A stretch of 64,000 bases of DNA from Mesodorylaimus sp. YZB2_4 (Eukaryota > Nematoda > Enoplea > Dorylaimida > Dorylaimidae): the NCBI GenBank assembly GCA_030248295.1, contig JASANH010001439.1, positions 110,047-174,046 on the forward strand, in the 5' to 3' direction. Within the stretch, counting starts at the first letter, position 1. Each line of letters starts with the position of its first letter. The position numbers were made by a program, and so were the translations under genes. Under the pieces are notes generated by a model. The model was not told where the DNA came from and searched no databases. It saw only the letters and a list, made by a program, of their open reading frames with translations. Shown here in pieces: positions 15,301-19,055 of the stretch.

Positions 15301-18300
15301 GTCAGGCTATGTAAACTGAATTTCTGGAATCGATCCGAAATTCTAAACTGATCACGTGCTCAATCATAATTAGGCCTATCGATTCGATCACCTGATCGAA
15401 CCCAAAAACTGATCTTGATTATCAGAAATCAATATTGATCACTTGTAAATCATGAATAATCGATGAGCTGATGAAGCTGCTTCCAAGACAAAAAATATCA
15501 CACCCAAATCTGATCTTGATCATCAGGTAACTGATCATGTGTGATTGATTATCAAAAATCAATATTGATCACTCATAAATCATGATCACCTGATCAAACT
15601 GCTTCCTAGACAATATATCACACCAAAAACTGATCATGATCCACAGATCATTTATCATGAGTGATATCAGCATCACACATGATCAATATTCAATATCGAT
15701 CACTCATGAATCATGACCTATCGATCACCTGATCAAATTAATTTCTTGACAAAAATGACACACCCAAAACCGAACACTTACCAGAAATGAAGAACGTATC
15801 GTGCGCATCCCGAGCAGGATGATGCTGAGGTTGGAACAAGGCATCGAAATTCCAAAACGAACTTTCCACATAATTATTCGTCGGCATTTCCGTAAACCTA
15901 CAAAAAATTTTTTAAAATCTTTTACTTTCTTCAAATTCTATTTAAACACCAAGACTTACCCCATTTCCAAAAATATTTGCCTATATTCGGCTCGAACTTT
16001 CAAAAGTGGATGGAAATGGCCGCCACTCGGCGGGACACCCAGAGCTGCGAAATTGTATTGTTTGAATTTCTTAGTCTTCCAAGAACCACTAAAAAACCCA
16101 TCTATATTTACAACTTTCTATACGGAAACTGCTTTTTTCGCATACTTAGCTAGCATCTCGGCAGTCAAATCCGTTTCTGGTTTTGTGACCGACGTCGAAA
16201 AATTCTCGCCTTTTGATACGAGAAAACTTTTCACAACCCTGAAATGGAGATATAATATATTCATGATAAAGTCAGAGATTGAAAACTCGTATCGATCGAT
16301 TCATGATCTGATCTAGATGATCACGACCGTGCGATGGTGGCCGCCATGCGATCATGGTCTCGAATAGAATATGATCACTCGATGATCACGTGAGAGTCAT
16401 GATCACGTGATGACCACTCATATCAGATAACGACTCGGCCCGCATCACACTGTGCCGCGCATGCCCGAGCAGATAGAACTGCAGTATCAGATGAAACAAT
16501 ATCTGAGTACCTGGATGTTGGGGCAGGAAAACCCACACCTGAAACCATATTATACCTAACCCAGATACATACAAGCGAAACCCATTTTTCCAATGTTCCT
16601 CTCCCAACACATACCAAACTACAGTAAGCTACAGCGCTTACACTTCAGTCAGCAATTTCCTCTTCTTGAACTCATTCTTCTGTTCCTCCGTCACTGCGTT
16701 CACATTACCGTCTCGTATTTGCAAAAGTGTTCTCTGAGCGGCATCTTCGATTTTATCCACCTTGAAAAGACAAGTTTTTTCAAATCCAAAGTGTTATCAA
16801 AATCTACACTGTATTCTCACTTTAGGAAAAACCATCGGGCCATTGGCTTGTTTGTCAATTTTGATCCATCCAGCCGCTAAAGCTTTGCTAAATCCAATCT
16901 TTGCGTTTGGACCAGTTTTCTATACACAATAAGCCCACTTAACTTTTTCGTTCCGACTTCTTTATCAGTCCCTTACCCCCAACCATTGACTTATTGTGAC
17001 CCCCAAACCAAACCCTCTAACCAAGACCACCCGCCTCAGGCCTCCACAGGGACAGGTGTGATGCGGCCCACTGATAGGTGGGCGTGCGAGACCAAAGTTG
17101 GTGGGACAAAAACTACGACTAGGGCAAGCCAAGTCCATGGACTATGTATGCTGCTGAAACATCAGCCGGAGTGGGGTGGTTGACGTCCCCCAGCACGACA
17201 GTCACACAAGACACTGAGAGGCGGCCCCTCCCCCCAAGGCTCACCATCAGTTCGGCCTGACTAATCCCAGTGGATGGTACTTGTCGATACAAGACCGCTT
17301 CGTGGCTGCCATGATCGGCTACTTGGTTTCCTTCGCCCGACAGCTGCCATTGATGACGACTTACTGGTTCTGTTCTTACCTAAAAACACTTTCTTACTGA
17401 TATACTATGCACATTGGGTCCAAGCTCTCAGAACCATGTATTCAAAAAAGAGAAGAATAGTGGATGTCCATGGTTTGAAAAAGAAATCAGCTGAAAGAAA
17501 GTGAAATCTGGTAATCTTTGATAACTAGCACATGCCAGAAAAATTCTTAACGATCTCAGCAAAACTGGTATCTTACTTTTTATCAAATAGACAAAAGCCG
17601 GTCGAAATGAACACTTCAAAGCTGCGCCCACTTTACACTCCGCCTCCTAAGCTCCGCCCACTTCACTCTCACCCTAAGCTCCGCCCACTTTACACTCCCC
17701 GAAGCCCCGCCCACTTTACACTCACACTAAAGGCGCATTTATAGTCGACAAAATTTCTACTCCTTCCCCTAGGGTAGGTGTAATTGCCATATAATTAAGC
17801 GTGTGCTATTACTCCTACCCGAGGGGTAGGTGTAGAAATTTTGTCGACTATAAATGCGCCTTAAGCTGCGCTGACTTTACACTCCGCCTCCTAAGCTCCG
17901 CCCACCTAACACTCCCCAAAGCCCCGTTCACTTCACACTCGCCACCCTAAAGACTGCTTACATTTCCTAGCACTTCCAGACTCTTCACTGCTCCCACCAC
18001 AGCTTGATGATCGATGCCAACTCGCTGAGCAATATCGATCGTATCTACGGCCTCATCACCAGATTCTTCTATTAGCAATAAAATTTTTTCAGCCAAATCG
18101 TGCGTATCCTCCGATGTACTAGTCCTTTCGCGCAATCGTACCATTTTCGAGACTGGCTTACTCGTAACCCTCGTTAGCGAACTTAAAATCAGAGAATACG
18201 ATTCCTCTGATTTCGGCCACCTGCAAAAAAAACCATGAATCTTATGAAACCAATAAGACCTCGTCGAAAAAATGACCACTCCGTGATCTGTGTTCACTAG

Positions 18301-19055
18301 AATTTTCTTTTCGTGTCACCATTTTCCAGCAAGCTTTCTGGAATACGGCCTCTGATTAGAAAAAAATGTTTTGCCGTATAATTGCATAAACCAATGCAAA
18401 ACTTGAATTTCCCGCCATCATCTGCCTATGCCAGCATTGCATAATTTCAAAACCCATCTTACTTTTGTCGAATCGAAGTCGGAAATGAATCAATATGTCC
18501 GTACCAACGCAGAAAATGGGCCAAATTTATTGACGAACCTGCGATTGCCTTATCGATGCACTCAAATATATTACAATCCGCACTCGTCGGCTGATATCTG
18601 AAATCGGAAAACTGATAAGCTATAACCCAGCACTACAATCAGGAAAGAAGACCCCACATGAAGAACACACGTGACCATCCAGCTAAGGACACTTAAACGT
18701 GAAAGCTGGCGAAATTCGAATTTAAAAATAGCGGGAAATCTATAAGCGCGAATCACTCCCTACCCGGGCCATGCACACATATGTACCCGCCGTCCGCCTG
18801 GCTTACACCAATCCAGGAAAGTCGCCACGACTCGTATGATCACCCATCTACAAGGACTAAGTAAATGAAGGTGAGGACTAGGGATTCAAGTTTAAAAATG
18901 GCAGGAAACTTTCACAAGCGAATCATTCAACACCCAGAGCATGTACTCACCGTTCCCCTGGCTCACACTCAGAAACACCCGACTTACCCTTCAATGTAAC
19001 TTCTACTCGATAGATACTCATTCAATTGATCAATAGACACCCAGGATATCGGCAT
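12374..19055 (-). CDS. FARSA: Phenylalanyl-tRNA synthetase alpha subunit with predicted N-terminal EF-1beta-like GST-C domain
   Basis: Cytosolic PheRS alpha, which pairs with the beta subunit to charge tRNA-Phe. Minus-strand exons: 19055-18988, 18597-18463, 18220-17962, 17379-17245, 16919-16821, 16760-16642, 16238-16146, 16088-15960, 15897-15782, 15234-15141, 14846-14747, 14324-14156, 13011-12819, 12476-12374; total 1812 nt, 603 residues plus stop. From the internal Met at 18144 the product is 510 residues, close to human FARSA (about 508). Seen: N-terminal winged-helix ([19 protein letters not shown]), class II motif 2 region ([32 protein letters not shown]), the phenylalanine-site [14 protein letters not shown] and motif 3 ([13 protein letters not shown]). 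The first two exons encode SYIEGYQPTSAD and [11 protein letters not shown], the hallmark of the EF-1beta/GST-C fold, and splice in phase through a 25-codon linker into the catalytic chain. The core call is very secure; the fusion needs RNA support. Confidence 0.93.
13037..13355 (-). repeat. Right arm of a ~320-bp inverted repeat
   Basis: Reverse-complement partner of 11944-12270. The 766-bp space between the arms holds exactly the last two FARSA exons (13011-12819 and 12476-12374), so a FARSA transcript could fold into a long imperfect duplex here. The arm lies inside the intron between exons 14156 and 13011. Confidence 0.85.
13470..14060 (+). repeat. Two tandem ~265-bp units, TTTTCC-rich
   Basis: Two diverged tandem copies in a FARSA intron. 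Shared blocks include GAACTGATTYACTGAYCTAC, GTCGAACGATTTTG/GTCAAACGATTTCG and runs of TTTTCCAGGTTTTCC-type sequence. The unit has no ORF. Confidence 0.65.
15345..15745. repeat. TGATCA-rich low-complexity intron segment
   Basis: A ~400-bp FARSA intron stretch of repeated TGATCA, ATCATG and ATCAATATTGATCAC-type units, roughly 120-bp periodic (for example ATCAAAAATCAATATTGATC at about 15550). It resembles other GATC-palindrome tracts in this window at 12590-12760, 16280-16420, 20815-21080 and 51470-51950. Confidence 0.65.
17070..17240 (+). repeat. Copy of the GGCTGAAACATCA dispersed family
   Basis: Contains GGGACAAAAACTACGACT, a CAAGTC segment and GCTGAAACATCAGCCGGAG followed by GGGTGGTTGACGTCCCCCAGC. 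The same order is found at 20345-20480 and 39430-39560. It lies in a FARSA intron. Confidence 0.55.
17617..17960 (+). repeat. GC-rich minisatellite, ~26-30-bp unit, split by a MITE
   Basis: Units of the form AAGCTCCGCCCACTTTACAC plus a short C-rich end repeat about four times at 17617-17727 and again at 17865-17950, interrupted by the 131-bp TIR element at 17731-17861. The right edge touches the donor of FARSA exon 18220-17962. Confidence 0.85.
17731..17861. mobile_element. 131-bp MITE with 30-bp perfect TIRs and TAA duplication
   Basis: The first 30 bp (starting AGGCGCATTTATAGTCGAC) are repeated exactly in inverted form at 17832-17861. TAA occurs on both flanks (17728-17730 and 17862-17864), as expected of a 3-bp target duplication. 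Non-coding; inserted into the surrounding minisatellite. The 3-bp TNA duplication suggests a PIF/Harbinger-type transposase in trans, by inference. Confidence 0.88.
18710..18990 (+). repeat. Tandem duplication of ~170 bp
   Basis: Two diverged direct copies share TTTAAAAATRGCRGGAAA, AGCGAATCAYTC, CATGTACYC and CCTGGCTYACAC blocks (about 18718-18812 and 18890-18970). They lie in the first intron of the predicted fused FARSA gene. Confidence 0.55.

What the first reader, a model, noticed from the sequence alone, without database searches (positions are those of the whole stretch)
17962..19055. PheRS alpha subunit with an EF-1beta-like GST-C domain fused at its N-terminus
Seen: two exons (19055-18988 and 18597-18463) encode a GST-C-type peptide with SYIEGYQPTSAD and [11 protein letters not shown], close to the start of EF-1beta. 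Donor AA|GTAAGA joins acceptor TTTTGCAG|G TGG in phase to a 25-codon open linker that runs into the normal PheRS alpha start. With these exons the CDS is exactly 1812 nt. Known: GST-C domains link MetRS, GluProRS, CysRS, ValRS, AIMP2, AIMP3 and EF-1 into complexes. I know of no PheRS alpha carrying one. Inference: it may tether PheRS to EF-1 or to the multi-synthetase complex.
Basis: partly seen in the sequence, partly recalled or inferred. Interest (0 to 1): 0.85.

Follow-up and report, generated by a model that had tools for sequence, protein, structure and literature searches.

The report
PheRS alpha fused to EF-1β domain
In this roundworm the gene for the enzyme that loads phenylalanine onto tRNA appears to have captured the first two exons of elongation factor 1-beta, which would give the enzyme a ready-made plug for the machinery that carries loaded tRNAs to the ribosome.

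Summary
The minus strand of this nematode window carries a 14-exon cytosolic PheRS-alpha gene of exactly 1812 nt (603 aa). Its first two exons encode a 68-residue EF-1beta-type GST-C domain (human EF-1beta N-domain 5DQS_D, E 7e-11). New evidence: the same genome holds a complete EF-1beta gene on another contig, and its first two coding exons have the same intron positions and phases (SYIEG|Y and RQK|, both phase 2). The PheRS exons are best read as a captured copy of EF-1beta exons 1-2. The two domains share 32 of 64 residues while synonymous sites are saturated (dN 0.63), so selection has kept the copy as protein. This is the only cytosolic PheRS-alpha found. The splice sites to PheRS are good and in phase, and the 25-codon linker scores as coding. 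No RNA was available, so the joined transcript is inferred. Most likely the domain docks PheRS on eEF1gamma, as EF-1beta does, a link otherwise known for ValRS. A published table lists GST domains only on Cys-, Glu-, Met- and ValRS. It is a new variant of a known kind.

The parts
18988..19055 (-). Exon 1: start codon and first third of the EF-1beta-type GST-C domain ([23 protein letters not shown]), phase-2 donor
   Evidence: donor AGG|GTAAGT ranks 4 of 3928 GT sites on the strand; same intron position and phase as EF-1beta exon 1
18463..18597 (-). Exon 2: rest of the GST-C domain (YQPTSAD...[10 protein letters not shown]...RQK), phase-2 donor
   Evidence: acceptor ranks 17 of 3867 AG, donor 79 of 3928 GT; both ends match EF-1beta exon 2
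18221..18462 (-). Joining intron, 242 nt, GT-AG; holds none of nine poly(A) hexamers searched, which is weak evidence since 671 of 1276 windows of that length hold none either
18145..18219 (-). 25-codon linker W69-K93, probably former PheRS 5' leader made coding (inference)
   Evidence: codon score equalled or exceeded by 2% of 921 open intron stretches; 22% of 1056 coding windows score no higher
17962..18220 (-). Exon 3: linker, possible native PheRS start Met94 (18144, context AAAATGG) and first PheRS DNA-binding domain (PheRS_DBD1)
   Evidence: acceptor ranks 5 of 3867 AG
12374..17379 (-). Exons 4-14 of cytosolic PheRS alpha (DBD3, DBD2, class II core) to the stop codon
   Evidence: human 3L4G_A, E 1.5e-217
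19256..20040 (-). Upstream neighbour on the same strand: last three exons seen of a cyclin C gene, stop at 19256, about 200 nt before the fusion's start codon
   Evidence: translation; name recalled from known cyclin C sequence, not searched

Best explanation
A copy of the first two coding exons of EF-1beta, its eEF1gamma-binding domain, was placed upstream of the single cytosolic PheRS-alpha gene. Its phase-2 donor came to splice onto the first PheRS exon in frame and turned the 25-codon 5' leader into a linker (the gene structure is shown; the splicing is inferred). The product is a 603-aa PheRS alpha carrying an EF-1beta N-domain. Cytosolic PheRS is an alpha2-beta2 enzyme (PMC7373986, passages), so each tetramer would carry two such plugs. 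The plug most likely seats on the GST domain of eEF1gamma, in the place or manner of EF-1beta, and so holds PheRS next to eEF1A for hand-over of Phe-tRNA (inferred), as ValRS is held in the vertebrate eEF1H complex.
For: Intact 14-exon frame with canonical splice sites. EF-1beta identity: 5dqs_D E 7.3e-11. Both introns shared in position and phase with the genome's own EF-1beta gene. 32 of 64 residues identical with saturated synonymous sites, pS 0.86 against pN 0.42; neutral drift reached that identity in 0 of 4000 simulations at each of d 0.8, 1.0 and 1.5, and in 1% of 4000 at d 0.5. The exon-3 acceptor scores highest of the gene's 13 and ranks 5 of 3867. The linker is coding-like. Hits to the EF-1beta exchange domain lie on C11 and C13, plus one below cut-off on C211, none on the window's contig, so exons 1-2 are not the start of a second whole EF-1beta. 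One cytosolic PheRS alpha found. 5DQS is the complex of the eEF1Balpha (EF-1beta) N-domain with the eEF1gamma N-domain (PMC7160314, passages; PMC10452860, passages). An eEF1gamma gene is present.
Against: No transcript or peptide data. Met94 lies 11 residues before the point that aligns with the human start and has a good start context, so an unfused form could be made, by an internal promoter or by trans-splicing at 18220. An open frame in the right phase alone would arise by chance in about 8% (26-codon openness 866 of 3435 overlapping windows in 11 PheRS introns, times one third). The GST-C exons themselves score less coding-like (0.04) than the linker (0.11) and the PheRS core (0.22). Lack of a poly(A) hexamer in intron 2 is weak: 671 of 1276 windows of that length lack one, and PheRS itself has no AATAAA within 1500 nt of its stop, the nearest of the nine being GATAAA at +82. 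No related genome could be examined. The eEF1gamma contact was not modelled. The domain carries a 3-residue insertion relative to human and nematode EF-1beta and has changed 11 of 32 residues that those two share.
Confidence: 0.66

Rival explanations
1. Two genes, not one: exons 1-2 make a stand-alone EF-1beta-type GST-C mini-protein (an eEF1gamma-binding inhibitor or spacer), and PheRS alpha starts at Met94 from its own promoter or trans-splice site at 18220.
For: Without splicing, exon 2 meets a stop at once (RQK-stop), which would give a neat 68-aa domain. Met94 has good context AAAATGG. The acceptor at 18220 is strong enough to be a trans-splice site, and nematodes often trans-splice (general knowledge). 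The missing poly(A) hexamer in intron 2 does not weigh much against it.
Against: The same immediate stop follows EF-1beta exon 2, whose donor must be spliced to make EF-1beta; it is a by-product of a phase-2 GTRAG donor. Linker looks coding and in frame. No canonical SL1 22-mer within two mismatches in the genome, though other leaders are possible.
Confidence: 0.19
2. Both forms are made: a fused isoform from the upstream promoter and a plain PheRS alpha from Met94, so that only part of PheRS is tethered. (Overlaps with the main explanation.)
For: Start context at Met94 better than at Met1 (AAAATGG against GTTATGC); strong acceptor at 18220.
Against: No independent sign of a second promoter or leader; none was searched for beyond the SL1 searches.
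Confidence: 0.12
3. The domain is a plug for the multi-synthetase complex (AIMP2/AIMP3/MetRS/GluProRS type) rather than for eEF1gamma.
For: GST-type domains of the same superfamily build that complex (PMC4394549, PMC10452860, passages); AIMP3 is the next GST-type family by sequence (E 0.013).
Against: Score for EF-1beta (45.5 bits) far exceeds AIMP3 (19.1 bits), and the exons match EF-1beta's in their borders.
Confidence: 0.08
4. A decaying gene fragment or assembly artefact placed beside PheRS.
For: No RNA evidence of use; the GST-C exons have a lower codon score (0.04) than PheRS (0.22).
Against: No stop or frameshift in 68 codons after saturation of synonymous sites; the genuine EF-1beta is on another contig and only half identical, so it is no mis-join of that gene.
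Confidence: 0.03

Closest known systems
EF-1beta (eEF1Balpha, EEF1B2) N-terminal GST-C-like domain
   Same: Sequence (5dqs_D E 7e-11), similar length, both intron positions and phases of this genome's EF-1beta gene
   Different: Here it lacks the acidic region and the nucleotide-exchange domain and is followed by PheRS alpha
ValRS of vertebrates in the eEF1H complex
   Same: A synthetase with an N-terminal GST-type domain that ties it to eEF1B (PMC4394549, passages)
   Different: ValRS is class I and its GST-type domain (predicted residues 1-213, PMC10452860, passages) binds eEF1Bbeta; PMC4394549 says the domain could be restricted to Deuterostomia and that C. elegans ValRS lacks it, though its reference list also cites a paper titled on Artemia ValRS associating with EF-1
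GST-appended MetRS, GluRS/GluProRS and CysRS
   Same: GST domain appended to a synthetase (table of AARS Online lists CysRS, GluRS-E, MetRS, ValRS; passages)
   Different: All four are class I in that paper's table; PheRS, a class II enzyme, is not listed with a GST domain
Human cytosolic PheRS alpha (FARSA, 3L4G)
   Same: Residues 111-603 align over human 7-496 (E 1.5e-217)
   Different: The human start aligns near residue 105 of this protein, so the human enzyme has no counterpart of the first 100 or so residues

Membership tests
Cytosolic PheRS alpha subunit | PheRS_DBD1, DBD3, DBD2 and class II core | tested here: met
   PF18552, PF18553, PF18554, PF01409 all above cut-off; 3L4G_A E 1.5e-217
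Cytosolic PheRS alpha subunit | Single gene in the genome | tested here: met
   PF01409 search: hits on C204 (this gene), C65 (likely the mitochondrial enzyme, not verified) and one sub-cut-off hit on C19
EF-1beta N-terminal domain | Sequence match to the EF-1beta N-domain | tested here: met
   5dqs_D E 7.3e-11; 32 of 64 residues identical to the genome's EF-1beta
EF-1beta N-terminal domain | Exon structure of EF-1beta | tested here: met
   Both introns at the same position and phase
EF-1beta N-terminal domain | Binds the eEF1gamma GST domain | not testable with these tools
   Partner gene present; no binding or complex model
EF-1beta (whole protein) | Acidic region and nucleotide-exchange domain | tested here: not met
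   No EF1_GNE hit on the window's contig; none of either in the 603-aa protein
GST-appended aminoacyl-tRNA synthetase | GST-C and synthetase in one reading frame of one gene model | tested here: met
   Continuous 1812-nt frame over 14 exons with 13 GT-AG introns
GST-appended aminoacyl-tRNA synthetase | GST-C and synthetase in one mature transcript and protein | not testable with these tools
   No RNA or peptide data; splice-site and codon evidence only
eEF1H-type complex with a synthetase | Synthetase purifies with eEF1 | not testable with these tools
   Needs biochemistry
eEF1H-type complex with a synthetase | ValRS of this genome lacks its own GST domain | not tested
   Seven requests did not complete

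The most novel reading that the evidence does not exclude
In a nematode lineage PheRS, a class II synthetase, has taken over an EF-1beta seat on eEF1gamma by carrying EF-1beta's own docking exons. This makes a PheRS-eEF1 complex that channels Phe-tRNA to eEF1A, an independent counterpart of the vertebrate ValRS-eEF1H complex that arose by exon capture.
Probability: 0.45. Interest if true: 0.75.

Novelty: new variant of a known kind. Interest (0 to 1): 0.62.

Why it matters
GST-type plugs on synthetases are known, but the published table read here places them only on class I enzymes. Here a class II, two-subunit synthetase would carry the docking domain of an elongation factor, with the donor gene still present and its exon borders matching, so the origin by exon capture can be read directly. 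It makes the old question whether linking a synthetase to eEF1 aids tRNA hand-over testable with a natural second example besides ValRS.

Tried and rejected
Second EF-1beta gene at this locus: rejected, no exchange-domain hit on the contig. Mis-assembly of EF-1beta onto PheRS: rejected, the genuine EF-1beta is on C13 and only half identical. A second, plain PheRS alpha elsewhere: not found. Poly(A) argument: first counted as support, then found weak on checking; for that reason the main confidence was lowered from 0.68 to 0.66 and the two-gene rival raised from 0.17 to 0.19. Spliced-leader signal: Rfam SL1 gave 0 of 1, but only 50 of 31302 candidates were scored, so it says little; the 22-nt SL1 with up to two mismatches had 0 matches. 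Relatives of the fusion in viral contigs: 7 stretches matched a pattern, 0 confirmed. Arc1p_N_like across the genome found one stretch only, the eEF1gamma exon, below cut-off; it missed the window exons and EF-1beta, so it cannot rule out other GST-C fusions. Searching the genome with the GST-C peptide alone found only the window's own two exons among 3 scored candidates and missed the EF-1beta exon, so it too is insensitive. No nematode relatives could be reached: says the genome has none here, the collection of genome contigs is prokaryotic by its description and was not scanned, and the cap for metagenomes was zero. Paper searches on a GST domain on PheRS: 9 of 9 listed; 17 of 17; 20 of 37; 12 of 12; 11 of 11; 10 of 79; no listed title or abstract start names one. 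Passages only were read of PMC4394549, PMC7160314, PMC10452860, PMC8409312, PMC11580382, PMC7373986 and PMC12632765; PMC8409312 counts GST_C among mobile domains (3 translocations) and discusses PheRS domain changes, but the passages seen do not join the two. Open-access papers only; protein databases were not searched, so the architecture may sit there unremarked.
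Full report
What is there. On the minus strand a PheRS-alpha gene runs from 19055 to 12374 in 14 exons with 13 GT-AG introns, 1812 nt, 603 aa. Residues 107-590 hold PheRS_DBD1, DBD3, DBD2 and the class II core, and residues 111-603 align to human cytosolic PheRS alpha at E 1.5e-217. PF01409 hits elsewhere are on C65 (likely the mitochondrial enzyme, not verified) and one sub-threshold stretch on C19, so this is the only cytosolic copy found.

The extra domain. Exons 1 and 2 encode 68 residues. 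phmmer against PDB gives human EF-1beta N-domain 5dqs_D at E 7.3e-11. The next entries are E. coli aminopeptidase N at E 0.007 (taken as chance) and EF-1 epsilon (AIMP3) at E 0.013. Pfam's Arc1p_N_like passes its cut-off by 0.3 bits on the 93-residue piece and fails in the full-length protein; it also fails on the genuine EF-1beta, so Pfam alone would not have settled it.

Origin. The genome holds an intact EF-1beta gene of eight coding exons on C13 (213 aa, with acidic region and exchange domain). Its first coding exon ends at SYIEG| in phase 2 and its second at RQK| in phase 2. The PheRS exons end at the same two places in the same phases. In the alignment 64 codons pair: 32 residues are identical, 21 of those 32 with a different codon, pS 0.86 (saturated), pN 0.42, dN 0.63. 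In 4000 simulations per distance, neutral drift gave the observed identity in 1% at d 0.5 and in none at 0.8, 1.0 and 1.5; a frame free of stops survived in 5-11%. All drift was put on one branch in these simulations, so they are a guide and not a test. Of 32 positions at which human and worm EF-1beta agree, the fusion keeps 21; identity of the fusion is 24 of 52 to human and 25 of 52 to the worm's EF-1beta. The duplication therefore looks old and the copy constrained as protein. The exchange domain has above-cut-off hits only on C11 (an EF-1delta-like gene) and C13, with one weak hit on C211, so exons 1-2 are not the front of another whole EF-1beta.

Is it joined to PheRS? No RNA is at hand. 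The indirect evidence follows. A splice-site matrix from the other 18 donors and 18 acceptors (PheRS and EF-1beta genes) ranks the exon-3 acceptor 5 of 3867 AG sites, the exon-2 acceptor 17 of 3867, the exon-1 donor 4 of 3928 GT sites and the exon-2 donor 79 of 3928 on that strand. The 25-codon linker scores like coding sequence: 2% of 921 open intron stretches score as high, and 22% of 1056 coding windows score no higher (1081 training codons, which include those windows and a frame at 6092-7258 that I took to be coding). The GST-C exons score 0.04, below the linker (0.11) and the PheRS core (0.22), so codon use supports the linker more than the domain. None of nine poly(A) hexamers lies in intron 2, but 671 of 1276 windows of that length have none, and PheRS itself has no AATAAA within 1500 nt of its stop (GATAAA at +82), so I give this little weight. 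The hexamers found between 19260 and 17962 are AGTAAA at 19193, which could serve the upstream cyclin C gene, and AATATA (18572) and AATAAA (18531) inside exon 2. Against the fusion, reading on from exon 2 gives an immediate stop, Met94 is near where PheRS normally begins and has a good context, and a 26-codon open frame in the right phase has about an 8% chance by itself. The immediate stop also follows EF-1beta exon 2, so it does not favour a stand-alone mini-protein. I put the joined transcript at about 0.8.

How it would work. 5DQS is the complex of the EF-1beta N-domain with the GST domain of eEF1gamma (PMC7160314 and PMC10452860, passages; [quoted passage not shown] The genome encodes eEF1gamma (C14; 5dqs_A E 1.7e-38 for a piece joined by hand). 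The simplest reading is that PheRS is docked on eEF1gamma beside eEF1A. This works like the ValRS-eEF1H link. The review PMC4394549 (passages) says that the ValRS domain could be restricted to Deuterostomia and is missing in C. elegans; its reference list also holds a title on Artemia ValRS associating with elongation factor 1, so the limit may not be strict. ValRS of this genome could not be examined, because seven requests did not complete.

Known or new. AARS Online (PMC11580382, passages) lists GST domains on CysRS, GluRS-E, MetRS and ValRS only. The RNA 2020 review (PMC7373986, passages) names Pro-GluRS, MetRS and AIMP2/3. In six paper searches (two of the lists were cut, 20 of 37 and 10 of 79) no listed title or abstract start names a PheRS-alpha with a GST domain. 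Protein databases and other nematode genomes were out of reach, so the architecture may already sit unremarked in annotated genomes. I class it as a new variant of a known kind.

Noticed in passing
17727-17865: Inverted repeat with 61-nt arms, 90% complementary, 17 nt apart, in PheRS intron 3, with copies of a short GC-rich unit (CCTAAGCTCCGCCCACTTTACACTC type) around it; looks like a small mobile element and a minisatellite.
   Followed up: partly
19256-20040: End of a cyclin C gene (name recalled) on the same strand, its stop about 200 nt before the fusion's start codon, with an acceptor-like CAG at 19082 just before that start (not scored); an operon-like arrangement is possible.
   Followed up: partly
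L015 (C11:950000-958000): EF-1delta-like gene with a coiled-coil-like stretch, acidic region and exchange domain; its N-terminal exon was not mapped.
   Followed up: no
1496-3172: 558-aa open frame with reverse-transcriptase motifs (recalled), likely a LINE-type retrotransposon.
   Followed up: no
5424-7258: Frames resembling a BIRC6-type ubiquitin-conjugating domain and upstream exons (recalled resemblance).
   Followed up: no
58744-59163: Open frame resembling NDUFB7 in a single exon (recalled resemblance).
   Followed up: no
whole genome: No match to the canonical nematode SL1 leader within two mismatches, although cuticle collagens are plentiful; suggests a lineage with a different leader or none.
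   Followed up: partly
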